From: Ophioderma brevispina
Lineage: Eukaryota > Echinodermata > Ophiuroidea > Amphilepidida > Ophiodermatidae
DNA length: 64,000 nt
Assembly (NCBI GenBank): GCA_023653785.1
Contig: JAMKCH010057072.1
Span: 1 to 64,000, forward strand
Direction: 5' to 3'
In this document: positions 3,515-54,425 of the stretch, one piece after another
How positions within the stretch are numbered: position 1 is the stretch's first letter
Layout: each line of letters begins with the position of its first letter
Notes under the pieces: model-generated
What the model was told of the DNA's origin: nothing
Databases searched by the model: none
Seen by the model: only the letters and a program-made list of their open reading frames with translations
Program-made: the position numbers and the translations under genes

Positions 3515-4440
3515 CCATTAAAACAAAAAAGAAATCAAACTAAAAACAAAAACAAAACAAAAACAAAACTTCAAATAAACAAACTGAAATAAAAATAAAA
3601 CATTCCACACACACACAAACAAATTTTAAAATAAAAAATCAAAAGATTTTTTGGTTAAATTCCAAATTTATTTAAAAAAAAACACATCAGTCCTCAGACC
3701 GCTTGTGTCGCCTGCCGTCACGGTTTGTGAATGAAGTCCTCACATGACCTTTGACCTTTATATGTGACCTTTGACCTCATAAACAAATGAGGGATTGCAT
3801 GTAAGCTCCATAAACCAAGTTTGGTTCCAATTGTACTTCAACTTTTCAAATGAGGTCAATTTTACATTTTCAGCCTATTTTACAACCTTTGACCTTGGTA
3901 CGTCGAAAACGCAAATCGATTTGACGTCCTTCTTAAAACGTCGATTCAATTTGCATTTTCGACGTGAATTTATAAAACCGTCGACCTTTTTTCGACGTGC
4001 CAACGTTGTTTCGACATCGCTCTAAACAACTATGCCCGCTGGGTATCTTACAACTTGACCTCACATGACCTTTGACCTTGGTATGTGACCTTTGACCTCA
4101 TCAGCAAATGCGGGATCCCATGTTGTATCTATGACTGAAGTTTGATTTAAATCCAATCACACAATATGCGGACTATTCCCAAGCTGACCATATGTTACAC
4201 CCCCTGTTTTCACAACAACAGACCAACAACAGACTACAGGGGTATCGCAAGTGATCCGTATTTCAAATCTGTATGTGTCTACTCTCCTGCCTAAGGCAGG
4301 CGACAACAAAGTGATCCCGATGTGTCGTCTGCCTTAAGGCAGGCGACACAAAAACATTCCTGAAAAAACAAATCCCACTAAAAATCCAAATAATAATAGA
4401 AAAACTTCCAGATAAAAATGGTATCAGGTGGTATGGGATC
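3515..4440. repeat. AAAAC-rich repeat, copy carrying an insertion
   Basis: The left part (to about 3690) and the right part (from CATTCCTGAAAAAAC at about 4353) together match 826-1100. The intervening 670 bp is the family-B hairpin element described separately. Confidence 0.8.
3682..4352 (+). mobile_element. Helentron-like hairpin element, family B, complete copy
   Basis: The 5' part has GACCGCTTGTGTCGCCTGCC with subterminal motif GTGTCGCCTGCC (3705-3716). The body holds repeated TGACCTTTGACCT units with phrases such as TATGTGACC and GTTCCAATTG. Near the 3' end are an ACAACAACAGAC-type microsatellite and two hairpins of CTGCC..AAGGCAG type, the last running into GGCAGGCGACAC (4338-4349), the exact reverse complement of the 5' motif. 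The paralogous site at about 990-1001 lacks it. Confidence 0.8.
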
Positions 4441-9999: not shown

Positions 10000-10135
10000 A
10001 TATTGCGTTGCTCGGACCGCTTGTCGCCTGCCATTGCGATTAGTGAACGATAGGCTCATGTGACCTTTGACCTTAACATGGACCTTTGACTCCCAAAGAA
10101 ATGAGTTTGCGAGGGGGACTGAGGGAGGTATTTTC
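10000..10135 (+). repeat. Family-B hairpin element, 5' fragment
   Basis: It has CTCGGACCGCTTGTCGCCTGCC then TGACCTTTGACCT. No 3' hairpin follows. It is duplicated at 13085-13235, where GCGGT-GCTCGG-ACCGC forms the 5' hairpin and GTGTCGCCTGCC is intact. Confidence 0.75.
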
Positions 10136-10205: not shown

Positions 10206-10583
10206 ACGTGGATCCTGGGTTTCTACCGGAAATCATTTTACCGAAATTCCTATCCAACGATGTACGAGTAGATATGCATCACTCCATGCATGCTCACAGT
10301 TTAGTGCGCCTCCTTTAAATCACGCGAAAATTTTGTGGTTCAAAAATTACAAGGCAATCAAGAGTACCGTTACTGGTTAAAATTTAAGTGACAGCAACGG
10401 TTTCGAACACATTTTATGACAGAAAAAATGACGTAGACCCCAAAACACATGAATATATATGCGCTATTATTTTATCTACTCGTACATCGTTGGGGCATTG
10501 TGGATAGGAATTCTGGTTTTTGTTTTTATTCGGTAGGTAAAAACTGATTTCCGGTAGGTAGGTAGGAAACCCAGGATCCACGT
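10206..10583. mobile_element. MITE with ACGTGGATCCTGG ends, uninterrupted
   Basis: It runs from ACGTGGATCCTGGGTTTC to GGAAACCCAGGATCCACGT, with long inverted ends containing ACCGGAAATCA and TGATTTCCGGT. There are no coding frames of note. It belongs to the left unit of the local duplication. Confidence 0.85.
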
Positions 10584-11877
10584 TATTATTACATGTTCAC
10601 AGATCATGCACCCAATTGCAAAGATTTATTATTTTGTACCAGTACCCAGGACATAATAACCACATTTTACTCATTCCAGCTAAGTCTGAGCAGATCCGAT
10701 CAAGTAATAACATTTCCCATATCATTTAGGCATTATCGATATTATTTGGAAAATAAGAAATCTTGAAAACATTGCAACTAGCATTATAAAATTTGTCAAA
10801 CTGATGAAAACTCATTGATTTTTGTCAATGCACGAAAAACAATTAACTTCATTCATAAAACAATGGATTAGCCACTTTTTACCAATCAAATGTGAACTTC
10901 AATGCCAAAAGATATCCTTAATGATAATGACAACACCCATGATCAATCCATTAAAATAATTCTGATGAATATGACTTCACTTTTCAATTGACATTCATAC
11001 ACGTACATGATCTCAGAATGTAAGCACGGATGGCTATGACAGTCAATTCAACACATATTTACAAACCGGTGGGTTCCCCTGTGCCAGGTACAAAAACAAA
11101 GTTAAATGTAGTTGATGTAATACGTTCTTACCCCGCTCAATCCTCTACTCAATATAAGTGATGAAGCATCCATTGGTCACTCAATCAAATCAATACAGCT
11201 AAGTGACTTCACAGGAAAAAAGGTCTATAGTCATCTTCAGGGTCTGTTAAGTTGAGCATCAATGACACAGCAGCTTAAACTCCTAACAAATGACCTGAAG
11301 TTGTTGCTTTCTGATTTCCGTACTGATAGTTAAGTGTAGCAATCCTTCACATAATTTAGCTCGGTAAAAATTTCAAACAAAAAAAAAAAAAAAAAAAATA
11401 ATAAGTTTGTTAAATTTGGATATTGTACCTATTTAAACAAAACAATGATTTAACCACACATTCTAAATGGTTACTGTTTCAATTATGGAAGTGAAGCTAT
11501 TTATATAAATGTTCCCAGAAAACACAAAACATTTTGACATTAATGTTTGTAAAATGATATAAAAATATGAAAAGTCGGTTCTCAAAATTATTTGGAAAAT
11601 AAGAAATCTTGAAAACATTGCAACTAGCATTATAAAATTTGTCACACTGATGAAAACTCATTGATTTTTGTCAATGCACGAAAAACAATTAACTTCATTC
11701 ATAAAACAATGGATTAGCCACTTTTTACCAATCAAATGTGAACTTTAATGCCAAAAGATATCCTTAATGATAATGACAACACCCATGATCAATCCATTAA
11801 AATAATTCTGATGAATATGACTTCACTTTTCAATTGACATTCATACGTGTACATGATCTCAGAATGTAAGCACGGAT

Positions 11878-12078
11878 CACTATGAGTTACAATATGCTCA
11901 TCCACCAAGGGCACAGTTCAGTAGGTTGTACTTGTACATGCATTGACATGAACTGATCTTGTGTATTCTAGGTATCATATATCATACACAAAAACCAGAG
12001 GGTGTGTTTCTAAATACACTGGTAAATGAAAGCTATTGAACTGTGCCATAGGAGTTGATACTTCATTGCCTCATAGTG
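11878..12078. mobile_element. 201 bp MITE with CACTATGAG ends, present in units 1 and 3
   Basis: It starts CACTATGAGTTAC and ends TTGCCTCATAGTG, 9 bp perfect inverted ends. Unit 1 has it at 8785-8987. The middle unit (about 11027) lacks it and reads CACGGATGGCTATGACAG, an empty site. A diverged relative begins at 47645. Confidence 0.8.
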
Positions 12079-12481
12079 AATGACTATGGCAGTCAATTCA
12101 ACACCTATTTACAAACCGGTGGGTTCCCCTGTGCCAGGTACAAAAACAAAGTTAAATGTAGTTGATGTAATACGTTCTTACCCCGCTCAATCCTCTACTC
12201 AATATAAGTGATGAAGCATCCATTGGTCACTCAATCAAATCAATACAGCTAAGTGACTTCACAGGAAAAAAGGTCTATAGTCATCTTCAGGGTCTGTTAA
12301 GTTGAGCATCAATGACACAGCAGCTTAAACTCCTAACAAATGACCTGAAGTTGTTGCTTTCTGATTTCCGTACTGATAGTTAAGTGTAGCAATCCTTCAC
12401 ATAATTTAGCTCGGTAAAAATTTCAAACTTTTGTAGATCGTCGTTTCAACATTGTACATGTGTAGATTTTGTCGTTGTTAA

Positions 12482-12631
12482 TCATTTATGCTTGACGCAG
12501 ATGCATTTGGCTTCTGTGTAGTACTCTATGGACTCCTTTGCTCCTTCCCTTCCCACACCGGATGCTTTCATTCCACCAAATGGCATGTTTAAATCTCGGA
12601 CCATCCAACAGTTTGTCCACACTGTTCCAGC
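12482..12631 (-). CDS. ALDH8A1: ALDH8A1-like terminal exon (intact copy)
   Basis: The last exon runs from acceptor CAACTAG to a TGA stop, exactly 50 codons including the stop. It reads AGTVWTNCWMVRDLNMPFGG and then MKASGVGREGAKESIEYYTE, ending KCICVKHK. This is the aldehyde dehydrogenase C-terminus with the FGGxKxSGxGRE motif; ALDH8A1 has SGLVWTNCWLIRELNLPFGGMKSSGIGREGAKDSYDFFTE...VKH. WTNCW and the C-terminal VKH are features of this subfamily. The exon is intact and joins in phase 0 to the exon at 16045-16140. A second, damaged copy lies about 3.1 kb further 3' at 9398-9552, in a duplicated block. Confidence 0.94.
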   Translation of the reverse strand, partial: AGTVWTNCWMVRDLNMPFGGMKASGVGREGAKESIEYYTEAKCICVKHK

Positions 12632-13084
12632 CTAGTTGTGGAGACAGACAAATGAAGAATATTAATTCTGGATACTTTGCATATTCTTTCTGAAGTCAAG
12701 ACTTTGTTTTTTGTTTTTTTTTGACAAGCACTTAGAAAGTTACTGACCTTCACTATCCAATATATGTTTTCAAACACATTAATGCATATCTTAACTGTTT
12801 ATTGCTCTTTATCGAGGGTTGACAAACAGAAAGACGTAACTCAGCACTGAAAGAAATATTAAAGAATTTCTTTAATTCTGCATAATTAAAAATTGTTCTT
12901 TGTATATATAATGTTTGCTTACAGTGCCATATATGAGCTTTATGAGATGTTTACATTTTGAGTAATGAATAGATTTGCTTAGTAGAAAATATTAAATATC
13001 ACATTTCTCAAAAGCAGTAGTAATTACAGGAGAATTCAGTGCTGAGTTACATCCTTCTGTTTGTCAACACTCGTTATATTATTA

Positions 13085-13235
13085 CAAAATATTGCGGTGC
13101 TCGGACCGCTTGTGTCGCCTGCCATCACAATTTGTGAATGATAGGCCTCATGTGACCTTTGACCTTAAAACGTGACCTTTGACCTCCCAAAGAAATGAGG
13201 GTTTGCGAGGGGAGGGAGGTCATTTTCCATAACAT
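13085..13235 (+). repeat. Family-B hairpin element, 5' fragment, better copy
   Basis: The 5' hairpin GCGGT/ACCGC, then GTGTCGCCTGCC, then two TGACCTTTGACCT units are visible. The element is truncated before its microsatellite. Confidence 0.75.
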
Positions 13236-13300
13236 TTTTTAATGGATAATTAAAGTCATCCATAAAAGACAGTTCCTTGACATGAAACATACTCAATAAG

Positions 13301-13659
13301 GTAGATCCTGGGTTTCCTACCGGAAGGCATTTTTTACCGAAATCCTAATCCAACGAGTACGAGAGAATGATCTCATGCATGCTCGTGGTTTAGTGCGCCT
13401 CTTTTAAACTACGCGCACATTTAATTTGTGGCGCAAAAATTACAAGGCAATCAAAGAGTACTCGTTTATGGTAAAATTTAAAGTACAGCAAACGGTTTTC
13501 GCACAGTTATGACAGAAAATGGGAGCCGTATGACACAAAACACCACGGAATATATATGCGCTATTGATTTTATTACTAGTAATAGTTGGTGCATTGTGGG
13601 ATAGGAATTGCCGGTAAAAAAATGATTTCCGGTAGCCATAGGAAACCCAGGATCCACAT
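13301..13659. mobile_element. MITE with GGATCCTGG-type ends, duplicate copy
   Basis: This is the right-unit counterpart of 10206-10583, with GATCCTGGGTTTCC at the left and GGAAACCCAGGATCC at the right. It differs by indels and a few substitutions. Confidence 0.82.
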
Positions 13660-13878
13660 ATTGACATGCTTCCCGATCCATGATCACCAATTGACAAGAG
13701 ATTTATCATCTTTTTTACCAGTACCCAGCAGGACATAATAACCACATTTTACTCATTCCCAGCTAAGTCTGAGCAGATCCGATCAGGTAATTAAACATTT
13801 ACATATCATTAATAGGATTATCAGATATTACATTCTCCAACAATAATCACCTAAAATCACTTTTATGCAAACAATTAA

Positions 13879-14533
13879 GGCACTATCAGAGTGAATTTGC
13901 TTAATCACAAAATAAAAAAATACTGCAAGTAAAACTTGCGGTCATCCCCCTGGCAAGTTGGCAGTATGGAACATGACATCTGGACCGTGGTCCATGACCT
14001 TGGAATCCATGCTCATATGAGGGAACCCCTATTGAACCTAACACCAAGTCTGGTTCAATAGGACTTCAACTTTGCGAGGAGAACTGAAAAACGAAAACCG
14101 ACCTTGGTTCAGAACGCAACCAAACTCGGGCACCACACAGACACATACCTCCGGACATGCGGCGCCCCTCACAATATCCCCCTCTGCTTTTCAAGCCAGG
14201 GGGATAAAGGGGAGGTAAAAAAATCAAAACTAAAATTTTGGCATCTTTGCAACAAGTATGGTTCCTACCACACTCCACAACGTGATACGACAAGAGCAGA
14301 CATATAAAGCAAAATTGGGTATTTTAGTTATTACGGTCCGAACGGACACTTACTAAAACACATAATTGAATGGAGTTCATATCTTTGAATACTGCTGTTT
14401 TCTTTCTTTTTATCAGTTTTTCCAGTTGAAAAAAATAACTTATAAGATTTCTACGGACTTATCCTACACTTTTTTTAGCTATTCCTGCAAATTCAAAAAT
14501 TTTGACGCTTTTGGACGGATCACTGATAGTGCC
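13879..14533. mobile_element. TTAA-type MITE F carrying a nested hairpin element
   Basis: The left end is GGCACTATCAG after TTAA, the right end CACTGATAGTGCCT. It matches 35209-35579 (371 bp) once the 284 bp family-D4 insertion at about 13921-14218 is removed. Confidence 0.78.
13921..14218 (+). mobile_element. Helentron-like hairpin element, family D4, complete
   Basis: The 5' hairpin is GCAAGT-AAA-ACTTGC (13925-13939), then subterminal ATCCCCCTGGC (13944-13954). The body has CATGACCTTGGAA and a short ACACAGACACATAC tract. The 3' hairpin TATCCCCCT..AGGGGGATA spans 14175-14206 and includes GCCAGGGGGAT (14195-14205), the exact complement of the 5' motif. It lies inside MITE F. TAAAAAAAT occurs on both flanks, either a 9 bp target duplication or chance in an A-rich site. 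Confidence 0.8.
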
Positions 14534-15263
14534 TTTCAGTGAAACTCGGTTCATCCAATAAGAAACTTCACTGAACATCTTTGCTAGTTTTATATCTTAT
14601 GTTTTTCTAATTTTTTTGTTTAAATTACATCTTTGTTAGTTTTATATCTTTATTTTTTTTTTAAATTCGTTAACAACATATACAAATTCAGAATTTTTCG
14701 TCAAGATTTTGTTTTTACGTGTTAACCAATGGCGACGTCCTGAAATCGGAATTTCTGGCTGCCCTCCCCTGCCTATAACTTAAAATAGAAACACTCTAGT
14801 GTAAAGATAACAACTGAAGGTCATTGTTTTGATTTGCTTTTAAGACACCTTATTTGTTAAGACTGAAGGTGTTTCTCAACCATTTTTAAAAATAGATTCT
14901 TAGTATTTCTAGGCAAAAATGGGCTTCCTAGTATTTCCAGGAAAAAATCAAATTTTGATTTATACAAAATTGTGAGTTTAAAAAAGTTTACCATGTCAAA
15001 AATACTCTCGGCATACTTTATAGGAAACTTCTGATCAGAGTGGGAGAATGTGATAGCGGTAATTGTTGGCCTTGAGGCAAGATGGAACCAATGACTTGCC
15101 AGGATTAAACTGGGTTCTCGTTTTGGATTATTGGTAAAGATTTATGGATTAAATATGAGGATTCCGCTCTCCCCGTGGGTCATTTGGAGTTGGGCATATA
15201 ACTATGAAAGCCCTTGTCTTTTGGAGGGGATGTAAAACTGTGGCTCCCCTGTATAGAGCTTAA
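14534..15263. other. No gene seen
   Basis: T-rich repeat-like sequence with TTTTATATCTT twice (14588, 14640). It lies beyond MITE F and before the TTAA MITE. Confidence 0.5.
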
Positions 15264-15607
15264 AGGGGGATGGCCCGATTAAGGATATGAGTTTTCATCT
15301 TGATAGTTGGCCTTCACTCCAAAACCCCATCTGTAAAGTTTCGCGCCGATATTTCAATCCATTTTGATGTGAGAGCTAAAAACATGATTTTGTAAGCCCC
15401 ATAGAGTACTGTGTAAAATTAATATTGGTCGACCAAAATGTAGCACATTTTCGCTCATAACTTCCAAACCAAACATCCTTTGGTTCTAAGATTTCACAGG
15501 GTAAATGAGAAAAATAGTAGCTTTCTTCTGATACCAAAATTTTGACCACTTCCAGTAAAATCTGGGGCATCTGGGGATGAGGCTATTAGCAATCGGGCCA
15601 TGGACCT
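15264..15607. mobile_element. TTAA-flanked MITE (AGGGGGATGGCCC ends)
   Basis: TTAA (15260-15263) precedes AGGGGGATGGCCCGATT, and AATCGGGCCATGGACCT is followed by TTAA (15608-15611). The length is 344 bp, with no coding. A second copy starts at 34960 and is itself interrupted by MITE F. Confidence 0.88.
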
Positions 15608-15868
15608 TTAATCCCCAACTGTAAAAATACTTCCCAGTGCCCTAAATACAGTACACTTCCTATAGATAATAACTTAGAGGCAGCAGCTTAATCAGTGCCA
15701 AGTTGCAACATCCGAACTAACCAAACACACACACAATGAGAAGTGAGAGCTTTCATGATTCATTTGCCCATATCAAATGAACCATGAGGAGAGTAGTAAA
15801 TTTTGAGTTTAATCAATATCACCTATACAAATTAAACCCAGAATTGGATATCTAGCATAAATCCAGCA

Positions 15869-15950
15869 AGTATCCCTCTGAGATTTGAACCGGGGACACT
15901 TGGGTCCAACGGCAAGCTCTCTATCCATTAGACCATGCCCCTCCATGGTG
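15869..15950 (-). mobile_element. tRNA-derived SINE head
   Basis: The minus strand reads GGCATGGTCTAATGGATAG, matching the RNA polymerase III A box (TRGCnnARYnGG-like), and about 35 bases later GGTTCAAATCTC, a B box. The acceptor stem does not close properly, so this is a tRNA-derived SINE promoter or tRNA pseudogene rather than a working tRNA. The SINE body would extend towards about 15.66 kb, but I could not define its end. Confidence 0.6.
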
Positions 15951-16044
15951 CGGGTTTCTTAGGTGATCCAAGAAGGAATAATGCATCAGAATAATTAAAT
16001 CACAAAGCCATTCAACAAGATCATCTTACATAGCGACTACCTAC

Positions 16045-16140
16045 CTGTAGCTTTTGTGCCACCCTGTGTGTTTTTCCTACATCATTTGTCCACACACATG
16101 CTGCCAAGCCATATTTTACATCATTAGCTCTTCTAATAGC
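16045..16140 (-). CDS. ALDH8A1: ALDH8A1-like penultimate exon
   Basis: A clean 32-codon exon on the minus strand reads AIRRANDVKYGLAACVWTN followed by DVGKTHRVAQKLQ. It aligns residue by residue with ALDH8A1 VIERANNVKYGLAATVWSS...NVGRVHRVAKKLQ, the segment after the EEIFGPV motif in aldehyde dehydrogenases. Acceptor TTTTTAG precedes GCTATTAG and donor GTAGGTAG follows CTACAG, so both junctions are phase 0. There are no indels. The next exon (12482-12631) also starts in phase 0. The preceding exon or exons, which should encode about 90-100 residues including EEIFGPV, were not found between here and 34.39 kb. Confidence 0.93.
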
Positions 16141-17225
16141 CTAAAAATATAAAAGAAAACAAATTGCAACTACATCAATGTCAAACCAAAATCGACAAGA
16201 AAACAAGTGCGGGAGGGAATGGTCATTTCATCTATCGAAATGTTAGCTCCCAATGATTGATTTTTTTGTGCAAAAGCAATATTTAAAAATACAATAAAAA
16301 TAATAAAATGATTAATAAGGGGAAGTTCGATGTTTTTTACAATGTTTAATAAAATAATAGTACAAATATGACTCAAATGACTCAGTGATTGATAAAGGGA
16401 GTAGCACAAAGTATAATTTCATTATTAGTAACCTTTTAATATTTCAAGTTATGTATACGACAGTGATCAATTACCGTACCTATATATTGAGAGCGAACAG
16501 GTTGTGAGCACGCAATATTGATAAATATTACATGTGGAGTTGGCACATCACTGAAAAAAAGGTTAAAGGACAAGGCCGGGCATGATTGTCTGAATATGAT
16601 AATAAATACCAATTCTTCAGTGTCAACGGAATAAAAAGAGAATACCTACTGTATTATTGTATCAATGCTGCCACATTTTGATTGGACCACAGTGGTACGT
16701 ACCTGTTTGTGCTTTCCTAAGAAGCCTTTGAAAATATCAACCAATATAGCTGGTCAATTTATGGGAAAAAATACCCACCTTAACCAATGCATACACCGCT
16801 GCATCCTGACCTGGATTTTTGAAGGGCCCCTGGGGTGGACCTCTAATAGCCAAAATTGACACCAGGAATAACATGTTAAAGTCTAATACAAGTGAACCCC
16901 TAGAAAGCTTTTACAGTATAGACAAATCCGACCAGCCAAATGATGATCAGAATTGATCCGCCATTACTGGGGGGCACCCAACCCAAAACCTACCCAAATC
17001 TTTTGTACGTCTGTACCACGCTTGATTAAGTATAATTCAAAAGCTATACTTAATCTGCACATTTGGGTGAATTCAAGCAGGATGCACCCCAGCTATGGCT
17101 GCCAGTGAGGTGTTGGAATGCGCGAAATCAGATTGGTGTATAGTGGGAAATTTTCTAGCCATTTTATTTTCACACTTTTCGAGGTGAACAATGTATCTGT
17201 AATTTTAAATCTTGTATCCATAGGG

Positions 17226-17514
17226 CAGGATTTTCAACCTTTATTCCCTGTGACCCTCTTTTTAAATCTTTATCACAGGGCGACCCCCGACACTTTACAA
17301 CACTCACCCCCCCCCCCCCCCCCCCCCTAAAAAAAAAAAAAAAAAAAACCCCCCCCCCCACCACACTTGTTACTCCGTATTGTGCCCAAATCTACAAATT
17401 AATGTTCCTCACAAATAGGACAGTTTAAATGAAAATTGAGATTTTTTAAAATTTAGCTTTGCAACCCCTTTCTCATTTGCCCATGACGCCGGCCCCAAAG
17501 GTTGAGAAACGCTG
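17226..17514. mobile_element. hAT (Charlie-like) MITE with 8 bp target duplication
   Basis: The element starts CAGGATTTTCAACCTTT and ends AAAGGTTGAGAAACGCTG, inverted repeats of the Charlie type (CAGxGGTTCTCAACC). It is flanked on both sides by the same 8 bp, CCATAGGG (17218-17225 and 17515-17522), as hAT transposases make. No transposase is encoded in the 289 bp. It contains an uninterrupted run of about 20 C, then about 20 A, then 11 C (17307-17359). Confidence 0.9.
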
Positions 17515-18049
17515 CCATAGGGTTTAATGCAGAGATGGTAAAAAAAAAATTGTGTGAAAAGGTACCGGTAGTTCCAAGAACCCCCCCGAACATCCATTAT
17601 ACAATTCCTCCTAATATATTAATGAGCGCATGTTGTTGATCACGAATGAACCCAAACTTGCCATGTCTATGCACTGTGCAATAGTTCTGGATGTGTGATG
17701 CTTATGACATATATTAGGACTCAGCTCATTGTCACACATTTGGTTTCTTGATGCGTTTGTTTTAAATTGTTGTGGACGTGCAGGATTCAACAAATGGAGA
17801 GAAGGTTTATTGGTAATTTTGAAAACTTTTTGATAAATGAAATTGATATTTAAACAAGGCGGTTCTCGAACCACAAAGGTCCCCCGCCCGTCGCGATAGT
17901 AAATGGAGGGAAATATAATTTTAAGATCACAGGGAGAATTGTGATGGAAATAAGTGGTTCTCAAACCACAGAGGCTGCTGCCATAGCAGTTGCAATTTGA
18001 TGGTATCAAATGTTGACTACATTGACCATACAACTATTTGTAGTTATTT

Positions 18050-18835
18050 GACCTTAAATGACCCTACTTGACCTTGAAATGACCTTCACAATTTTCGGTT
18101 TAGAAATGTTGATCACATCCACAAAGTTTCATGACCTACCACGTTGAGTTGACCTACCATGTTGAGTTAGTTGTCCTTGAATAACCCCATGACCTTGAAA
18201 TGACCTTCAAAATTTTCGGCAATGAATGGTATGATTTGACATTGGATGACCCCCCACAGACCCTTGGAAATGGACCATAAAATTTTGGCACTGATGCTTG
18301 GACCACACCCTCCAGTTTCACGCAATCTCCTACCACAACTTAGTGATTTGACCTTGGATGACCCCGCATGACCTTGAAATGACCTTGAAATTTTTTGGCA
18401 CTGAATGCTGACCACACCCACCAAGTTTCATCATCCTACCACCTACTTAGTGGTTTTGGACCTTGGATGACCCCGCCTGACCTTGAAATTTTTTCAAGCA
18501 CTGAACTTTTGACCACACCCACCAAGTTTCAGCATCCTACCACATTGACAAGGGCTATAGCAATTTAATTCCATTTGACCTTGAATGACCCCGCATGACC
18601 TTGAAATGACCTTCAAATTTTTTGGCACTGAATGTTGACCACAACCACCAAGTTTCATCATCCTACCACATTTGACAAGGGTTATAGCAATATTATCCCA
18701 TATGACCTTGAATGACCCCGTATGACCTTGAAATGACCTTCAAATTTTTCGGCGCTGAAAAGTTGACCACACCCACCAAGTTTCATCATCCTGCCACAAT
18801 TACCAAGGCTTATAGTAATTTAATCCCATTTTTGA
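18050..18835 (+). repeat. Tandem array, unit about 115-120 bp
   Basis: About seven degenerate units contain CATGACCTTGAAATGACC, TTTTTGGCACTGAATG, GACCACACCCACCAAGTTTC and ATCCTACCAC. The array makes up the centre of family C. Confidence 0.85.
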
Positions 18836-19290
18836 CCGCATTTGACCTTTGACCCATGCCATATGCCCCACCTCCGAACTCATCCACCGTCTACTTGGGT
18901 GACATCTATGGTGCGAAGATGGGCACCCATACTTGCTTAGATCAAAATATATTGTGTTTACAAGGCTTATAACAATATATCCTATTTTTGACCAAATTTG
19001 ACCCTTTTTTTGACCATATTTGACCTTTGACCCATGCCACATGCCCCACCTCCGAACTCATCCACCGTCTACTTGGGTGACATCTATGGTGCGAAGATGG
19101 ACACCCATACTTGCTTAGATCAAAATATATTGTGTTTACAAGGCTTATAACAATATATCCTATTTTTGACCAAATTTGACCTTTGATCTATGTCACATGA
19201 CCCACTTTACATCCCAACCAATGCCTACTTGAGATGCTTGTATGTTGCGGAAGATGGACACCCAAACTTGCTTAGATCCAGAGATATTGC
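18836..19290 (+). repeat. Tandem array, unit about 190 bp
   Basis: Two nearly identical units and a third diverged one carry CATGCCCCACCTCCGAACTC, TCTACTTGGGTGACATC and CTTGCTTAGATCAAAATA. Confidence 0.88.
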
Positions 19291-19295
19291 GTGGG

Positions 19296-19344
19296 ACGCA
19301 CGCACGCACACACGCACGCACACACGCACGCACACACGCACGCA
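19296..19344 (+). repeat. CACGCA/CACACG microsatellite
   Basis: A CACGCACGCACACACGCACG-type run lies immediately before the 3' hairpin of family C. Similar CA-rich runs lie at the same position in the other hairpin families. Confidence 0.9.
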
Positions 19345-19574
19345 GGGCATTTCTATAGCCCCCCTTTGCCAACTAAAGTTGGCGGGGGACCAACAAAATA
19401 ATTGCAAAAGAGAAACATCTTTTTGTTTTTTATTGTTGTTTCCCCTCTGGCTCAAAAGCAGGGACAAAATGGACCGAATTTGTATTTTCATCTCTCTTTT
19501 TTGGAGAGTTTTGACCAATTTTTAGCCTAAATTTGGGCCAAATTAATGAAAAGGGGGCATTTTCACACATATTT

Positions 19575-20209
19575 CGTCGCCCGCATCACATACTGTCGTA
19601 TTTCACATTTTTGAGGTTTTTGCGAAATTCCGCCTACTTACTTTGTTCATCGAGTTCTTGCCATCCACAAAGTTTGAAAATGTGAGAATGCCTAATTAAT
19701 TACAGATTTTTGTCATTTTCCTCAAAATCATCATATCCGAATTTCACATACTGTCGTATTTTGAAATCGCCATTCATTTACATGTGGTTTGATATACCGT
19801 TGTATTTTGCCGATCCGAAAATAAACGATTTCACATACAGACCTATTTTGACGTATTTCCATCGTTATTTCGTAAACAAGTTTTCACATAGTGATCTATT
19901 TTACGCACATTGAAAAACCACGGCGTAATATGCGTCGTATTTTGCAATATACATTATTTGTGATTTTACATACAGACTTATAACTTTGTAGCCTAATTAA
20001 GATAATATAATTGCAGTATTAAGTTGGATTTATGGTTTATATTGGACCTTAAAAATGTTTTTCTTCTCTCTTCCAAAATAGTAAAGTGTAGATGTTTCTT
20101 TTATGCTTCGTTCTACCGTATAGACATGAAATGTCGCGGTAGATTTTGAATTGCGATTTTCTTGGAAAACGTGTTTTGTAAAATACGACAGTATGTGATG
20201 TGGGCGACG
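19575..20209. mobile_element. TIR element J with internal copies of its own terminal motif
   Basis: The left end CGTCGCCCGCATCACATACT and right end GTATGTGATGTGGGCGACG are inverted repeats of about 29 bp with one mismatch. ATTT flanks both sides (19571-19574 and 20210-20213). Inside, TTTCACATACTGTCGTATTT or near variants recur at about 19742, 19830, 19882 and 19968. Confidence 0.85.
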
Positions 20210-20399
20210 ATTTGGTCCTGTTCAGGATTCGTTGGATGAAATTACCCTGACAACTTGAGATTGTTGCCCCACACCCACTATGTGACAAGAAATATTTTGA
20301 AAATGTGGACATATATATGACCAGGTCACTACATCCCTATCACATAGCTCTACAGATTGCATTTATTACTGAGCTAAACATTAGTCAAGCTTAATTTAA

Positions 20400-21162
20400 A
20401 GGTAAGGTGCAACGAGAGATTTCACAACAGGTGTCCCTAACAAAATTGAAAGCTCTGATTTTTGCCCTGATGTAAAGCTTTCCAGCAAAAATATCCCCAT
20501 CTGAAAGGATTAAGCTGATAAATGTTTCTTAGATACAAAAAATGTGAAATTCCTAATTTCGTATAGGAGCAAATACGAAATTTAGCCTATGTTTTATATT
20601 GAAATATGAGCAAATCAAATCACTTTTTTCTCTCTTTTAACATTTCTGTAGCAAAATACATGGTAAGAATTCTATTGAGTGTCTAATCTATATGAAACTA
20701 GAATTTCGCGGTTCTCGGCTTTCGCGCTCGCTATATTCAAAGAATATAAACTGTGGGCCGCCCCATGACCTTTTGACCTGGCACGTGACCTTTGATCTCA
20801 TCAACATATGAGGGATCGCATGGTGCACCTATGACATAAGTTTGGTTCCAATTGAACTTCAAGTTTTCAATTTAGATCAATTTTACATTTTTAGCCCATT
20901 TTTCAACTTAACCTCACATGACCTTTGACCTTTCAACATGACTTTGACCTTTCAACAGAAGTTTGGTTCCAATTGAAGTTAAATTTTTTAATTGAGGTCA
21001 ATTTAAAAAAAACTTAACAATTTTTGACACACACATTCACACAAACACACACACATACACACGCACAACGGATTGCTAAGTGGTCCTGCCAGCTATAGCT
21101 GGCAGCCCACAATTACTATTATGACACAATATTTGGGTGCTTCAAAATCTCTTGTTGCATCT
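20400..21162. mobile_element. TTAA-flanked MITE H carrying a family-A insertion
   Basis: TTAA precedes AGGTAAGGTGCAACGAGAG and follows AAATCTCTTGTTGCATCT. The second copy, 53180-53520, is uninterrupted, which shows that about 420 bp at 20697-21115 is an insertion. Confidence 0.85.
20697..21115 (+). mobile_element. Helentron-like hairpin element, family A, copy 1
   Basis: It starts ACTAGAATTTCGCGG with CGCG pairing CGCG across GTTCTCGGCTTT, followed by GTGGGCCGCC. The body has TGACCTTTGACCT-type units and GTTTGGTTCCAATTG. Then come an ACACACACATACACACGCAC run and the perfect palindrome TGCCAGCTATAGCTGGCA, overlapping GGCAGCCCAC, a 9/10 complement of the 5' motif. Other copies are at 44551-45025 and 45626-46092. 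Confidence 0.85.
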
Positions 21163-22009
21163 TTAATTTAATATTGTTATATTTGCTTTTGCAAATAAAG
21201 CACATTACAAAGATGTCATAACACCCTCTCTAAATTTTAACAACTCATATAAAATACCAAATGTGATACAGCATAAATGTGAGGGCACTATGAGCATCTC
21301 AATAACAGGCCAGGTGCTATAACTGAGTGTGCTAAAGAGGGCGCTATAACAGCTTTGCATGTGCTTTTCTCAGAACAAACCTGTGGGTCATTTAGGCCCC
21401 ATTTAGGATGCCATCTATGAATTCACACTAACCCAAGACTATGCTTGTTAGGACTCATTTAAATGCATTTTTCATGCTGAATCTGAAAATGGTTATGAAA
21501 ATACATAATGTGTAAAGGCTGACTCATATTTCGCGATGAGGGCGCACTCATTTTTCAAACAAATCATGTTTTTTGAATATACATAAAGCTTGTCCATATA
21601 CTAATCACTGTGTGAAATAACTAAGCTAAAAACAAAGTCCTTCATATAGAAAATCACAACTTTGTTAAAAACTCCGCGGATCCAGAATCTTCTTTATACA
21701 CTGTATCCTAAGGCATTGTTACACTGCGCATAAATATTTACTGCATGAAAACGAAAACCCCAATTTATCTGTAACTTTCGATTAACATTTTAGGTGCCTA
21801 TCTTTATTCCAGATGACTATTTTTAATTACTGCATAAAAATTAGATCTTTCAAATCTCTGAATTTCCTGTTTTAAACCGGTCGCTTAGCTTATTTCCTGG
21901 CCAGACCCAGGGGATGGGGGAAATCTGTAACGCTTAATATCATTGATATTTTAGGAATATTACTAACGCAGTTGTACGGATTAGGTAACGGTTCTTTATA
22001 AAATAACAA
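21163..22009. other. No gene seen
   Basis: Unremarkable AT-rich intronic sequence of the ALDH8A1-like gene; no repeats of known type recognised. Confidence 0.5.
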
Positions 22010-22470
22010 ATGAGGGTTTGTATGTAATCTCCATAAACTAAGTTTGATTCCAATTGAATTTAACTTTTCAGCCTATCTTAACACGTCCCTTACAGGACCT
22101 TTGACCTTGCTATTTGGAACCTTTGACTTCATCGACAAGTGAGGAATCCCATGTTGCACCTATGACTCAAGTTTTGGTTCCAATTGACATCAACTTTTCA
22201 TTGAAGTCAATTGTTTACATTTGTCAGTCCTACCTTCCTGTTGACCCACATGACCTTTGCCTTGGTATGTGACCACTGACCTCATCAACAAATGGGGGAT
22301 CCCATGTTGCAACTTTGGTCACAGTTTGGTTTAAATCCAAAATCTATCAAAGTAATGCATTTTACACGCAATGTTAACCTTTTCACAACAACAACAACAG
22401 ACATCAACAACAGTTGACAAAAGTGATCCCTATGTGTGTCTTCCTGCCTTAAAAGGCAGGCGACACAAAC
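22010..22470 (+). mobile_element. Family-B hairpin element, 5'-truncated
   Basis: The body phrases of family B (CAAATGAGG, GTTCCAATTG, TGACCTTGG) lead to AACAACAACAACAGAC and the hairpin CTGCCTT-AA-AAGGCAG followed by GCGACACAAAC at 22461. No 5' GTGTCGCCTGCC is present. Confidence 0.8.
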
Positions 22471-23109
22471 AAACGTTATTATAATAGTATAGATGACCGT
22501 AACTCAATGGCTTTGCGCTGTAGACGTTAAGAATTATACAGCCGTGGTCATAATATTTTTGTGGCAGTCTTTCTGTTAATTTACCTTATCTACAATATGG
22601 GAATGGGTAAACTTTCGATTTTTTAACAAAGATATTTAATATTTTTCTTTTTTTAATTAAGTTTCAAGACTTGTACTTATAGGGTGTTGTTACTACATTA
22701 TATCTTTGGTTTGTTCATATGTTTTTTATAGGTGGGGAAATATTAAGCTCAACCTTGCTCCTGGAAAGAAAACTCTGTTCCACCTAACAATTTTATAATT
22801 GAATGGTTAAGGCTTCTGCTCCATCAACCGATTATGATTGAGGAATTTCCTTTCCATAAAAGAGAGCTTCGAATCATCAGTAATAATAATCCTGTTCAAA
22901 CTAACTCCAACCCTCCTCATCCCCCCACCATAAAGGTTGTTGTTTTCATACCTACCCTCGCTGCACTGTGGTCTTAGCAGTCCGATTATATCGATCCTGC
23001 TGCACAACTCACCGACCTGCAACCTGCTGCAGCTGCAGTTAAAACAAGGCAAACTCGTATTACGCGATGCGTAAATAATGTCCCCCGCCGTATGTCGCGA
23101 TCAATAACA

Positions 23110-23685
23110 GGCAATAAATGCACTACAACAACACCCCACCCCCTCCCCAATACCACTCAAAAACAACCCCACCCCCTCCCCAACAACCCGCCAAACCCCA
23201 ACCCCCTCCCCAACACCCCCCCGCACACCCACCCCCTCCCCAACAGCCCACAACTCCCCCCCACCTCAACACCCCAAGCCCTCACCCCCACCCCACCCCC
23301 AACCACCTACCCCTTAACCACGCCTCTCTCCTTCCCCAACACGCCACTACCCCTTCCCCACACCCCTCAACACCCTCCCCCTCCCCACACCCCGCAACAG
23401 CATACCCCCAACACCCCCTCCCAAACAAACTATACAATGCCCTCCCAACAAACATGGCAACCCCCCACCCTTCCCAACATGCTGCAACACAACATCCCCC
23501 AAAACCCTGCAAACACCCCACCCCACTCCCAAATCATTCTCACATCCAACCTTCCCAACACCCTGCAACACACCACCACCTCCCCAACACTCCGCAACAG
23601 CCCACCCCCTCCCCAACAACGCAACACAGCCATCCCTACCCAACACCCTGCAAACACCCACCCCCTTCCCCGATGGCCATAGTAG
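23110..23685 (+). repeat. C-rich, G-poor minisatellite
   Basis: About 575 bases are almost free of G on the plus strand, made of variants of CCACCCCCTCCCCAACA spaced about 20 bp. The long open frames on both strands here (rich in Pro/Thr/Asn or Gly/Val/Trp/Cys) follow from the base bias and are not taken as genes. Confidence 0.92.
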
Positions 23686-23868
23686 TCTCATATATCCGAC
23701 ATGACGTTTCAGAGATACAGCAATTATTGCATCATAATTAGCTAATTGGAATACATATGGCCGCATATATTCACATACTTTCATATTGCAAATCCCCTAG
23801 TGGCAATAGTAGTCTCATGTAGCGAAGGAATTTTGCATATTCACAACGTACCGTTTAGAGATACAGCA

Positions 23869-23870
<2 letters not shown>

Positions 23871-23903
<33 letters not shown>
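23871..23903 (+). repeat. Poly-A run inside family E
   Basis: An uninterrupted run of 33 A between GATACAGCAAT and TTATGCATATTTAAT. It is absent from the equivalent position in the 49.6 kb relative. Confidence 0.9.
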
Positions 23904-23910
<7 letters not shown>

Positions 23911-24799
23911 TATTTAATAGCTCATTTGCATAAACCTATGCCACATATCTCACATACTTTCATATTGCAAAAAAGATGTGCCCCATGAATTCTTCATGCA
24001 GCGCAGGGTTTGGAGTATCCGAAGTACTGTTTGAAAAATATAGCAATTCGATATTTTTGCATATTAATTAGCTCATGTGCATACTCAATTTGCCCGAACT
24101 ACACCCAAAATCTTAATCAGGTTGAGAACTAATCAGCTCCCTTCATTCCACCAAGTACAAAATTATACGCCTTACAGAACTCGGAAAACTTGTTACACGG
24201 CCTTGAAGGAAAATCTTTCATATAAGTATGCAAAGTAAAGATTAATTATCATATTTTAAGACAAAATCTAATCAGGTCAAGAACTCATCACCCGCTTCTT
24301 TCCACCAAGTTGCATCATTGTCACCCTTACGGAACTCCAGATAAATCGTGTACAACATGGGTTAACATTGTTATCACAGACGGATGGACGGACGCTGCTC
24401 ATTTCGTAGTCCCTGTTCCGAACTCGTTCGGCGGGGACAATAAATTTAACTCGGTTGCACTACCGCAATGCAGTATACTGGACAGAGACTGTAATTCGAG
24501 CACTGCAACTTACCGCAATGCACGTTGCAGTGTAGTATGAACGAACCTTAAGTAAGGAGCAGTTGACAGTAATGTTTGTAAACATGTTAATGGGCCTGTA
24601 TGTTGAAATTAATTGGCCCCACTATTACACATTTGGCTACTGAATACCTTTTGGAATGTATAACGATTCAGGCCCATATACGCGGGGGAGGTTGTTTTGG
24701 TTCTCTTTCCACAAAAGGGGGCCAAAGGTACACTTCTTTTGTTTTTATTTTTTATATAAGAAGGTCCAGAATTTAGAGACAAAAATGACAATAAAGTTC

Positions 24800-42912: not shown

Positions 42913-44550
42913 CTAATATAGAATAGCTGGAAAATTAGTGCAAAATTTATGATACCATCCAACTAGAATTTGATCGTAATGTATATTATAAACTATAATC
43001 TAAAAATCACAGAAATGACTGTGGTTCTAATAACACAAGGGCCACCAACAATCAAAGATCAGGATTGAAAACATTAAAAAAAAAAAAAAAAAAAAAAAAA
43101 CATACTTATAATACCACCAAAAAATGGTTTGATTCATAGTATGTATTGGTATCAATGTAAACTCTGCATGAAAGCAGTAATTGGAAAACCGTATGATTTT
43201 ATACAAATTGGGCATAATATCATTTGTTTTGGACAAGCTTTTCAAAGGAAATTTCCACAATGAAAAGGTATCGCGCTGGCAAGCCGTGACCCTGAAGTGA
43301 CTTCCGAGAACAATACGCGATACGCATACGCATCATGATCTACATCGTGGAACGGACGTGCGCGTGGTGGCCCAGTTCTCTTGCATACATAACCATTGAC
43401 CTTCTCGTGATATGCGTCGTACGTGTTTTATCATATGGCATAATTTTGCTTGATTTGATGATGCCTTAAAATTAAACATTATAATGTGCTGTATGGCGAC
43501 GGCGGTGCACCAGCGGTGACGTCTACCCCGCCGGCAATGAGAATCAGAACAGATAGCTTATTCAAGTTTCCCGGAGACAAAGAAACCCGACAAGGAGAGA
43601 TATATGGAGTGTGCGGTGCGGTTAGAGCCCACGTTTGATCTTTGTTACAACTTGTTACTCTGACTTCATTAAACGGGGGTCAAATCCAACTCCAACAATC
43701 CGATAACGCGTTCGCGAAAACAGGAGATGGCCCTATCAGTTTGGGTATATTTAATCCTTGAAATTTAACACTTTGCGATGTTCCTTTTAAATCTGTGTTT
43801 GCGATATGATCAGGATCTGGTTGAGGTACGAAAATGTAGAAATTAAGAATGTCTACTCATCCATGTCCATGGACCGGTTAAGCAAAATAAAATAAATAAT
43901 CAAATAAAACTGACTTACGGATGATACCTAAATAAGATATGAGGGATAGGCTACGAGTTTGAATAATATTCTTTCTTGGCCCCACTAATAAACAAAATAT
44001 AATAAATTTTAATGATATAGAGACAAGAATGTTGAGTGTATTCCCTTTTTTAAAAAAAGTAAATACTTTTTTTTATATATTTTTTCTGATGTCAGTCTCT
44101 GCAACTATTCCACAGGTACGGTCCGTCTTTTGATCGTAATGTCTGCAAGGTCCGTGCTAAAGTAAAGTTCTAGGCGTAACAAGTGTGCAATTCCTCGTAG
44201 CGTATGTGGTGGAAGAGTATGCGTTTGACATATAATTATTACAAATTTAAGAAAGATGATTATAATAAATGGTCACAATAAACACGCTTTAAATACAATT
44301 TATTACTATATAAATAGTAAGAGTATTAACTGGTGGGGAGTACGCAAGCCATGATGAAGCATTGTGTACAGAGTTGAATTATAATTCTTCTGTTTGATAT
44401 ATTACTTTTCATGTTATAATTCTTAGAATCGCCCAAACATGTTACAATCCATACAGGGATGTAGGGGGTCCTGAAGAGAAAAGCCTGAACGCTTGAAAAA
44501 GTGTGGGTGAAAATTCAGTTAAAGCCTCCAAAACGGTCTGAAAAATAAAC
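42913..44550. other. Intronic, nothing recognised
   Basis: A 23-base A run at about 43077-43100 and a slightly CG-richer patch at 43260-43720 without a recognised exon. Confidence 0.45.
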
Positions 44551-45025
44551 TAGAAACTTTCGCGGTTCTCGGCTCTTCCGCGGCTCGCTATAATATTCCC
44601 AGAAATCAGCTATGGGCCTCGCGCCATGACCTTTTGAAAATTAGCCCTGGCACGTGACCTTTGATCTCATCAACATATGAGGGATCGCAGGTGCACCTAT
44701 GACAAAGTTTGGGTTCAATTGAACTCAATTTTTCAATTTAGATCAATTTTAATCCATTTTTAGCCGATTTTTTTTTCAACCTTGCCACCACCTCACATAC
44801 CTTTGACCTTTCAACTGACCTTTGACCTCATCAACATATGAGGGATCCCATTGTGGCCAACTCTATGACGAAGTTTGGGTTTCCAATTGAAGTTAAACTT
44901 TTCAATTGAAGGTCAATTTAAAAAAAAAAAAAAAAAACTAACAATTTTGACCAAAACACAAACACACATACACACGCACAACGGATTGCTAAGTGGTCCC
45001 GCCAGCTATAGCTGGCCGGCCCAAA
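44551..45025 (+). mobile_element. Helentron-like hairpin element, family A, copy 2
   Basis: It starts ACTAGAAACTTTCGCGG, has TGACCTTTGACCTCATC units, then CACACATACACACGCAC and the 3' palindrome GCCAGCTATAGCTGGC. Small insertions relative to copy 1 blur the subterminal pairing. Confidence 0.82.
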
Positions 45026-45625
45026 TCAATTGGTGGAAATTGGAGTAACTGAAGGCCTGAATTCAAGCTATAGCCTGAAAACTTACATCCCTGAAACTGA
45101 AGACACAGAAGGCACTTGCCCTATACAGAGAAAATAGTGTATCATTAGGTAGGGAGTGCTTTAATATAAAACAATACCAGAATACTTTGGATATTATATT
45201 TGGTCCTATCAATCAAGGCACTGGTAAATAAATATACCAAGAAATTTAGTGTGAGTTAACCTGGGGATGGTAATGTTCTCAATCTTGATATTCAAATGAT
45301 GATAACTAACAGTTGCTTTATCTGTTTTTAAACAAAACATCATGAAATTGGTAAAATACTAATCTTAAAAAAATTTATTACATTTAAAAGTTTAAAAAAA
45401 CACGCAAGTTGCAATATTCATGAAGCTCATATTAACAAAGTAATAAGTTGATCCACATTCGATCAGATATTATCAATATAGTATTGTCGTCAGCATAGAT
45501 AAACACAAGGCGGTTTTCTCGACCCAAGTGTCGCCTGGTTGCGCGGTCACTTGCTTTATGATGAATTTTGCAAATGATGATTAAAAGAGAACAAAGGCAC
45601 TGGAGAACAAGTGTTTATAACAAAA

Positions 45626-46092
45626 CTAGAATTTTCGCGGTTCTTCCTGGCTTTCCGCGCTCAGCTATATTCAAAGAATTATCATCCGTGTGGGCCGCCA
45701 TGGACCTTTGAAACACCTGGCACTGGCCTTTGATCTCAATCAACATAATGAGGGATCGCATGGTGCAACCTAGACAACATTTGGCTTGCCAATTGAACTT
45801 CAATTTCAATTTAGATGAATCTTTTACAATTTTATTAGCCCATTTTCACTTGACCTCACCTGACCTTGACCTTTCAACTGACCTTTGACCTCTCAACATT
45901 GACGGAACACATGTTGCACCTATGACAGAGTTTGGTTCCAATTGAAGTTAAAAACTTTTCAAATTAGTCAATTTAAAAAAAACTTAACATTTGGATACAA
46001 CACATCCACACATACACACATCCAACCAACACATACACACGCACAACGGATTGCTAAGTGTCCTGCCAGCATAGCTGGCGTCCCACAATTAA
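45626..46092 (+). mobile_element. Helentron-like hairpin element, family A, copy 3
   Basis: It starts ACTAGAATTTTCGCGG, with TGTGGGCCGCC, TGACCTTTGACCT, CACATACACACGCACAACGG, and GCCAGC-AT-AGCTGGC at the 3' end followed by GTCCCACAATTA. It lies 0.6 kb from copy 2 in the same orientation. Confidence 0.82.
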
Positions 46093-52869: not shown

Positions 52870-54425
52870 CGCGTGATCGTTGGACCGCTTTTGTCTCCTG
52901 CCGTCGCGGTTTTTGTGTCTGTGGGGGCCAAAGGTGATATGAGGTCACCAGTTCACATGAGGTCACCAAGGCATATTGGTCGCCAGGTCACATGGGTCAA
53001 CAAAGGTCACGAGGTCACAAGGTCACATGAACTTCATCCCACCTGTCCATTTCCTCAACGCACCCTGTCCATTCCCAAACCAACCCGTCCCCTCTCCAAT
53101 GCACCCCACCCTTCCCCCTCCCCAGGATTCAACTCGTCAGAGTTTGCGAGAATCAAATTCTTTCAATGACAACACTTAAGGTGCAACGGAGATTTCAAAT
53201 ACAGTGTCCCTTAAAATGTGAACATTGCTGATTTTTTGTCCCTGATGTAAGATTTCCATCAAAAATATCGCCATCTGAAAAGGATTAAGCTGAGAAATGT
53301 TTCTCTTTGGACAAAAATTGTGAAATTTCTATTTCGTATAGGAGTCCAATACGAAATTCAACCTATATTTTATATTGAATTAAGCAGTCAATTACTTTTT
53401 ACTCTCTTTAAAGACATGTCTGTAGCCATACAGGTAAGAGCTCTAATGGAATGTCTAATCCTATGAAAATCACAATTATACACATATCTGGGTGCCCCTC
53501 TCCAAAATCCTCGTTGCCCTTTAATATATGATTCATCAATGAGAAAATCATTCTCATAACATGGATGCTACGAGAATCCATGCAAGAATCGATTCTGTGA
53601 TTGGCTGCGTTAAGTTTCCTCCCGCTCCCTGATGCACCCCTCCCTGATGTACCCTACCCCTCCCCATCACCCCACATCCCCCTCCCTGATCACCCTCACC
53701 GACCGCAGCCTCCCCAACCCCCACCCCTACCCCTCCCCAACCCACCCACCGCCTGCCCCCCTCCCCACACCCCGGCCCTTTCCCCCCTTCGTATGATTCA
53801 CACACAAGATGTTGGGCCTATGGCATAACAGTTTTTCATTATGTATGTTTAACTTGTCTATTTGCCTACTAAGCCGCATGTCTGAGGAACTTTCAATGGC
53901 AAAGAATGCGCACCATGAATGGGTTTTCGTGCAGTGAAATTTTGCATATCGAATGTTACCGTTTCAAAAATAATAGCGAATTATCTATTTTTTGCATATT
54001 ATTAAGCTCATTTGCATATGCTATTTGCTGAAATATGCCCAAACATCTTTCAGTCGCGAACTCTTTTACTCACTTCCGGTATCCTTCCACCAAGTTACAA
54101 TCATTATAAGCCTTACATAACTCCAGATAAAACTTGTACCCAAGCCTTGCGGGAAAGGTTAACATTTTGACCCGCCAAAGGACATGAGTCAACCAAGGTC
54201 ACATGAGGTCACCAATATGTCACCCCATCCCAACCCCTCCTTTACACCAAAGTTACTCATCGTAGCCCTTACGGAACTCATATGGCATGCATATATTAAG
54301 GGTTAACACTTTTGACCACAGACACAAACACCACACAGAACACAACCAACCCTGACATACGCCAGATTAATCCCTATGTGCCCTTCTGCAATTCTTGCAG
54401 ATACACAAAAAGGTCTCACTGGCAT
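52870..54425 (+). repeat. Mixed hairpin-element copy (B-type start, E-type body) split by MITE H
   Basis: GGACCGCTTTTGTCTCCTGCC begins it, followed by AGGTCACCA units, C-rich tracts (53.03-53.13 and 53.62-53.78 kb) and the ATTTGCAT body (53.83-54.15 kb). At the end are CACAGACACAAACACC and CTGCAATTCTTGCAG as the 3' hairpin. MITE H sits at 53180-53520. Confidence 0.65.
53180..53520. mobile_element. TTAA-flanked MITE H, uninterrupted copy
   Basis: TTAA precedes GGTGCAACGGAGATTTC and follows CCAAAATCCTCGTTGCCCT; the ends are imperfect inverted repeats. Length about 341 bp. It serves as the empty site for family A at 20697. Confidence 0.85.

What the first reader, a model, noticed from the sequence alone, without database searches (positions are those of the whole stretch)
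13921..24440. A superfamily of non-autonomous elements with one shared hairpin plan across five sequence families
Seen in sequence: families A (20697), B (3682), C (17850), D4 (13921) and E (23060) have unrelated terminal words yet the same order: 5' hairpin, 10-12 nt subterminal motif, tandem array, CA/GAC-rich microsatellite, and a 3' hairpin fused to the complement of the 5' motif. Exact pairs: GTGTCGCCTGCC/GGCAGGCGACAC, GGTCCCCCGCC/GGCGGGGGACC, ATCCCCCTGGC/GCCAGGGGGAT; near pairs: GTGGGCCGCC/GGCAGCCCAC, TGTCCCCCGCCG/CGGCGGGGACA. Established knowledge: helentrons and their HINE/DINE-1 derivatives have subterminal inverted repeats, central minisatellites and a 3' stem-loop. Inference: several terminal families here evolved in parallel under the same rolling-circle machinery, with the motif pair coevolving by compensatory change.
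Basis: partly seen in the sequence, partly recalled or inferred. Interest (0 to 1): 0.88.

Follow-up and report, generated by a model that had tools for sequence, protein, structure and literature searches.

The report
Tandem-repeat-bearing Helentron passengers (HINEs)
These are non-coding passenger copies of a known class of rolling-circle jumping gene, present in many copies in this animal's genome and built on an already described plan; the new details are the members themselves and how their matched end sequences differ between families.

Summary
The motif pairs and hairpins are real. The class guess (Helentron derivatives, HINEs) is right, but the elements were read backwards. On the minus strand each reads as a published HINE: T-run, 5' subTIR + inverted repeat (hairpin), microsatellite, interior (often a tandem array), 3' subTIR, palindrome, T-run.

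End-word counts in the genome, against the word read backwards: B 9,615 vs 45, D 8,561 vs 232, C 3,122 vs 1,518. Both ends found in 13 of 20 fetched B loci, 12 of 12 C, 4 of 4 D. Paralogous empty sites for A, B and D lie in A/T-rich sequence without target duplication (D's left flank is weak). The genome has Helentron-type Rep-PIF1 proteins, but none of ten loci showed an A-E pair around the gene, so the partner is unproven.

The families are not all unrelated: C and E are homologous, and B, C and E share a block at the 3' subTIR. Matched changes were compared by eye only. A purine-rich bulge recurs in the 5' hairpin.

Verdict: new members of a known kind.

The parts
13921..14205 (-). D element (HINE). 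5' terminus at 14205 (ATCCCCCTGGC, hairpin with AGGGGGAT), 3' subTIR 13944-13954, 3' palindrome GCAAGT-TTT-ACTTGC 13925-13939. No tandem array.
   Evidence: both words and the 5' hairpin in 4 of 4 fetched genome copies, one of them with another interior and palindrome; word 8,561 vs 232 control
17854..19391 (-). C element (HINE). 5' subTIR 19381-19391 + IR hairpin; CA/GC microsatellite 19296-19344; tandem array 18232-19181; 3' subTIR 17878-17888; palindrome GGTTC-GA-GAACC
   Evidence: 12 of 12 fetched genome pairs show the same order
20697..21110 (-). A element copy 1 (HINE) with empty-site paralog at 53425-53548
44547..45020 (-). A element copy 2 (ends approximate)
45625..46086 (-). A element copy 3, lying beside a 3' end of another HINE-like element (45528)
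3683..4349 (-). B element copy 1 (HINE) with a duplicated 5' end (4306 and 4349); near-empty-site paralog at 881-1040
   Evidence: word 9,615 vs 45 control; 13 of 20 fetched loci show both ends
22005..22466 (-). B element, 5' end intact (GTGTCGCCTGCC + hairpin), no 3' end seen
23043..24439 (-). E element (HINE): 5' end 24428-24439 homologous to C; microsatellite GTCCGTCCATCCGTCTG; CCCCAC-rich array 23121-23671; 3' subTIR 23079-23090; palindrome TTACGC-ATC-GCGTAA
   Evidence: One copy only; genome count not obtained
10021..10032 (-). B 3' subTIR (one mismatch) inside a segmental duplication (8286-10744 ~ 11412-13830); no 5' partner within 3.5 kb
13112..13123 (-). B 3' subTIR, second copy of the same duplication; no 5' partner within 3.5 kb
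52891..52902 (-). Decayed B-like 3' subTIR (two mismatches) next to an AGGTCA array (52939-53030); no good 5' partner

Best explanation
The elements are HINEs: non-coding derivatives of Helentrons (endonuclease-bearing, Helitron-like rolling-circle transposons), all five named ones lying on the minus strand here. Shown: a 5' subTIR that starts after a T-run and folds with its own IR into a bulged hairpin, a matching 3' subTIR, then a palindrome and (B, D) a T-run; insertion into A/T-rich sequence without target duplication at three paralogous empty sites. Inferred mechanism: a Helentron Rep(HUH)-helicase-endonuclease acts in trans, nicks at the T/subTIR junction, peels off one strand, stops at the 3' palindrome and inserts into T-runs. 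The 5' subTIR can pair either with its IR (local hairpin) or with the 3' subTIR (ends together), which would explain why the three words stay matched in each family. The families are most simply read as diverged lineages of one ancestral element whose end words drifted by matched changes, with some swapping of modules.
For: Order and parts equal the HINE definition in the passages read. Word number against the word read backwards: B 9,615 vs 45, C 3,122 vs 1,518, D 8,561 vs 232. Pairs in the expected order within 2.5 kb among the 100 places listed: B 18 (opposite order 0), C 17 (opposite 1), D 12 (opposite 1). Both ends in 13 of 20 B, 12 of 12 C and 4 of 4 D fetched loci. 5' junction: 13 of 13 B and 4 of 4 D end in at least TT; C 11 of 12, the twelfth being TTTTTG. 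Empty sites for A1, B1, D. Helentron-type proteins: 60 PF14214 matches, several at one locus in places; DUF6570 beside the Rep domain in 6 of 10 frames scanned, one of them (L017) under Pfam's cut-off; one frame open for 2,044 aa continues into PIF1 and a weak endonuclease match, E 4e-4, under the cut-off.
Against: No RepHel gene with an A-E pair around it was found at ten loci, scanned about 4.5-7 kb either side of the Rep domain; lone words with one mismatch occur there or in the other RepHel loci (L009, L021, L052, L058, L060, L065), of which those in L052 and L060 look like 3' ends of separate HINEs. The C word is only twofold over its control. 3' palindromes are short, not significant alone, and often damaged: stem CGGTCC/GGACCG intact in 7 of 13 B, exact GGTTCGAGAACC in 7 of 12 C. 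D has no array, and the inner hairpin stem is missing in one copy (L087). Empty site D has a weak left flank (2, 5 and 0 of 500 shuffles reach it for three paralogs), and B1's junction lies in a low-complexity tract. The window copy of D has about 11 extra bases between T-run and subTIR. A was seen in three copies, E in one.
Confidence: 0.93

Rival explanations
1. Five independent families reached the same plan in parallel under one machinery.
For: subTIR words differ; the 5' word of each family matches its own 3' word best in 5 of 5 rows of the cross-family table, narrowly for A, C and E. A and D have little sequence in common with the rest.
Against: C and E 5' ends align with 26 invariant columns; CGCGAC stands before the 3' subTIR in 10 of 13 B copies, 4 of 12 C copies and the window's C and E; typical B and C palindromes differ by one matched change (GGTCC-GA-GGACC / GGTTC-GA-GAACC), by eye. 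L089 joins D subTIRs to a C/A-type palindrome.
Confidence: 0.2
2. Terminal-inverted-repeat or foldback elements (MITE-like) moved by a cut-and-paste transposase.
For: Inverted terminal words; several DINE-1-like elements were once annotated as MITEs (PMC4067079 passages).
Against: The two ends differ (IR at one, palindrome at the other); no target duplication at three empty sites; 5' junctions are T-runs.
Confidence: 0.03
3. Non-autonomous canonical Helitrons (5' TC, 3' CTRR, insertion between A and T).
For: The genome also holds RepHel frames with a strong Rep match and no DUF6570 (L009, L010, L011).
Against: Ends start GTG/GGT/ATC, and B and D finish in T-runs; subTIRs and a 5' hairpin are present; canonical Helitrons have other ends (PMC4067079 passages).
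Confidence: 0.04

Closest known systems
Cg_HINE elements of the Pacific oyster (PMC7492417; passages read)
   Same: 5' subTIR 11-12 bp + complementary IR + microsatellite, satellite-like array, 3' subTIR + palindrome, T-rich insertion, no target duplication, several groups in one genome; GTCC/GTCY microsatellites as in element E
   Different: Sequences were not compared; D here has no array; an asymmetric purine bulge is not described in the passages I saw
DINE-1 and mite/Culex HINEs (PMC4067079; passages read)
   Same: subTIRs near the 5' end, IR (DINE-1), 3' stem-loop, T-run junctions, tandem repeats in some; the paper notes such elements in sea urchin and molluscs
   Different: There partner Helentrons with shared ends are known; here none was found
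Pearl / CvA / DTC84 modular elements of bivalves (PMC5139131 passages)
   Same: Array-bearing modular elements; array flanks of some bivalve satellites assigned to the Helitron superfamily
   Different: Not compared by sequence here

Membership tests
HINE (non-autonomous Helentron) | subTIR pair of about 11-15 bp | tested here: met
   exact in B (12), C (11), D (11); A and E near pairs
HINE (non-autonomous Helentron) | IR complementary to the 5' subTIR, close by (DINE-1 / Cg_HINE type) | tested here: met
   folds; 12 of 12 C loci with a stem of 5-7 bp; 13 of 20 B loci, two of them damaged
HINE (non-autonomous Helentron) | 3' palindrome shortly after the 3' subTIR | tested here: met
   sequence, damaged in many copies (intact stem 7 of 13 B; exact 7 of 12 C); not significant as a fold on its own
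HINE (non-autonomous Helentron) | microsatellite and/or central tandem array | tested here: met
   TRF arrays in C and E, short one in A; D has a GTATG-type microsatellite but no array
HINE (non-autonomous Helentron) | insertion in T-rich sequence, T-runs at junctions, no target duplication | tested here: met
HINE (non-autonomous Helentron) | no coding capacity | tested here: met
   the four frames of 150 aa or more in the window are low-complexity array frames, two of them in E
HINE (non-autonomous Helentron) | shares ends with an autonomous Helentron in the same genome | tested here: inconclusive
   Helentron-type genes exist but none of ten loci had an A-E pair around the gene in the stretches fetched
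HINE (non-autonomous Helentron) | rolling-circle movement | not testable with these tools
   needs a transposition assay
canonical Helitron | 5' TC, 3' CTRR, insertion between A and T | tested here: not met
   ends GTG/GGT/ATC after T-runs
TIR transposon / MITE | constant target-site duplication | tested here: not met
   three empty-site alignments, clearest for A1

The most novel reading that the evidence does not exclude
The 5' hairpin is a switch: in all five families it is an outer stem, then a break with more unpaired bases (12 of 13 of them A or G: GA, AA, AG, AAA, AACA) on the 3' arm, then an inner stem. The subTIR can pair with its IR or with the 3' subTIR. The bulge would mark the strand and site for Rep, while the words are a swappable address code: element L089 carries the D words on another palindrome and interior.
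Probability: 0.25. Interest if true: 0.55.

Novelty: new member of a known kind. Interest (0 to 1): 0.36.

Why it matters
It extends the array-bearing HINE plan with sequence detail, gives several coexisting families in one genome with matched end words (a natural mutagenesis of the ends), and offers precise, testable hairpin substrates for Helentron Rep proteins, whose end recognition has not been worked out biochemically as far as I know (recalled; PMC4067079 also calls for biochemical studies, passage).

Tried and rejected
Simple inverted-word grammar without folding energy: too permissive. One search gave 25 merged hits on + and 22 on -, against 5-12 in ten shuffles scanned on one strand; most are AT-rich words or look like other repeats, and I did not use it as evidence. 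One search, tightened, gave 2 in the window against a mean of 0.9. The mirror control is invalid, because complementing a sequence keeps the grammar, and I do not use it.

Autonomous partner: 20 RepHel loci of about 3.5 kb were scanned for the A-E words and the flanks of ten for A-E words and for any new matched pair of ends (for the first two). The pairs reported at C16489 and C20739 look like other repeats, not HINE ends. A comparison of related RepHel copies did not show clear 3' ends.

Rfam: 0 matches in the window at gathering scores. tRNA: 0. B 5' end, exact 20-base pattern, in viral contigs and genome contigs: 0 and 0. Helitron plus nuclear receptor literature: of the 15 papers shown of 274, none held 'helitron'. 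For the asymmetric bulge I ran no search of its own; the Helentron searches were (listings).

Not obtained: genome counts for the A and E words and for AGGTCAAAGGTCA; the tool did not complete. No statistical covariation test (count of structure pairs, fold_alignment) was run.
Full report
What was checked. The hairpins fused to the right-hand motif are stronger than dinucleotide shuffles for A-D (z -2.96 to -5.95) and marginal for E (-1.67); the left-hand hairpins alone are not significant. A scan that demands the folded hairpin, an inverted 11-base word and a palindrome finds three elements in both strands of the window, A, C and D, all on the minus strand; 58 of 60 local shuffles give none and 2 give one. 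The thresholds were chosen after seeing the folds, and a simpler scan was not above chance, so the statistics in the window support but do not carry the case. The same scan gave one hit in 60 kb of arbitrary genome, not HINE-like, none in 164 kb of RepHel loci and flanks (30 shuffles of those two sets: 27 with none, 3 with one), and 14 hits in the 28 B loci, of which 13 are B ends (L001 and L048 are the same place) and one, L043, is another repeat.

Orientation. Read on the minus strand, the order is T-run, 5' subTIR, complementary IR, microsatellite, array, 3' subTIR, palindrome, T-run. That is the HINE definition given for oyster and mite elements and DINE-1 (PMC7492417 and PMC4067079, passages read).

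Copies. The window lies in a 2.51-Gb genome of 65,844 contigs. Exact word counts, both strands, against the word read backwards: B 9,615 vs 45, D 8,561 vs 232, C 3,122 vs 1,518, only twofold. These count words, not elements. In the 100 places listed by each call, pairs in the expected order within 2.5 kb number 18, 12 and 17 for B, D and C; in the opposite order 0, 1 and 1. I fetched 20 B loci (the 18 pairs and 2 others): 13 show the exact 5' word followed by GGCAG, and the exact 3' word; 7 failed that filter, and two of the 13 (L040, L046) have damaged hairpins. Of 17 C pairs I fetched 12; all 12 have both words, an IR hairpin with a stem of 5-7 bp on one strand only, and a palindrome in place, exact in 7 of 12. 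Of 12 D pairs I fetched 4; all 4 have both words and the hairpin. Family A is known from three copies in the window, E from one. Genome counts for A and E were not obtained because the tool was busy.

Ends (typical forms). B: T-run | GTGTCGCCTGCC CTAA GGCAGG AA GACAC ATAGGGATCAC ... CGCGAC GGCAGGCGACAC AAG CGGTCC GA GGACCG ATGTA T-run. C: T-run | GGTCCCCCGCCAAC TTTA GTTGGC AAA GGGGGAC TATAGAAATG ... CGCGACG GGCGGGGGACC TTTGTGGTTC GA GAACCGCCTTGT. D: T-run | ATCCCCCTGGCTT GAA AAGCAG AGGGGGAT ATTGCGAGGG ... ATCTT GCCAGGGGGAT GAC GCAAGT TT ACTTGC TGTA T-run.

Empty sites. A1: the paralog at 53425-53548 runs on across the insertion point (left and right flanks each beat all 500 shuffles); the junction is GAAA^A, a T-run in element sense, with about one base of ambiguity by my reading. 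B1: flanks match 843-945 and 981-1085, each beating all 500 shuffles; the junction falls in an A/T tract. D: right flank clear, left flank weak (2, 5 and 0 of 500 shuffles reach it for three paralogs). None shows a target duplication.

Families and covariation. The 5' word matches its own family's 3' word best in 5 of 5 rows, narrowly for A, C and E. C and E are homologous at the 5' end (26 invariant columns among 4 C and 1 E sequence). If their inner stems are lined up from the loop, they differ by two matched changes (GCCAAC/GTTGGC against CCGAAC/GTTCGG); the MAFFT alignment does not line them up that way, so this rests on my reading. Typical B and C palindromes differ by one matched change. 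One D-word element (L089) has a different interior and a C/A-type palindrome, which points to module exchange. In the five hairpins folded, the break in the stem has more unpaired bases on the 3' arm, 12 of 13 of them A or G; one D copy, L087, lacks the inner stem. No statistical covariation test was run.

Machinery. A profile search found 60 Helitron Rep matches in the genome, some of them several to a locus. Ten frames were scanned: 6 carry DUF6570 beside the Rep domain, one of these (L017) under the cut-off. One frame, open for 2,044 aa, continues into a PIF1 helicase and a weak endonuclease match under the cut-off. Among the 120 of 381 relatives listed, the named ones are from sea cucumbers, an acorn worm, bivalves and a coral, among others, so the host is probably a marine invertebrate. 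Flanks of ten such loci hold no A-E pair around the gene; lone words with one mismatch occur. The partner link is therefore inference.

Mechanism. Shown: ends, junctions, lack of duplication at three sites, matched words, presence of Helentron-type genes. Inferred: trans mobilisation by Helentron Rep-helicase-endonuclease, nicking at the T/subTIR junction, termination at the palindrome, and a switch between the local hairpin and end-to-end pairing.

Verdict. Ordinary in kind, well supported, with some useful new detail.

Noticed in passing
window 3741, 20916-20965, 22088, 40755-41338, 44790, 45854 and other array sites: Arrays carry AGGTCAAAGGTCA-like repeats (DR1-type nuclear-receptor half-site pair; name recalled). 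Exact counts: 46 in 33.9 kb of B loci, 4 in 16.2 kb of C loci, 3 in 60 kb of arbitrary genome, 11 in the window; reversed word 0 in all four sets. Genome count not obtained.
   Followed up: partly
window, whole: Of the HINE ends recognised in the 64 kb, A x3, B x2, C, D, E and the orphan 3' ends at 10021, 13112, 45528 and 52891 lie on the minus strand; a C-like 3' end at 28280 is on the plus strand. Those at 10021 and 13112 belong to one duplication.
   Followed up: no
window 4295-4349: B copy 1 has two 5' ends in tandem, as could come from rolling-circle read-through or nested insertion.
   Followed up: no
window 8286-10744 and 11412-13830: Segmental duplication, 84.6% identical over 2,558 aligned columns, with further high-identity blocks (97-99%) between 10733-11378 and 11579-12428.
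   Followed up: no
L089 1-367: D subTIR words on a different interior and a C/A-type 3' palindrome: a module swap or second subfamily.
   Followed up: partly
L043, L069:4250-4660: Other palindrome-rich repeat clusters that pass the grammar scan but do not look like HINEs.
   Followed up: no
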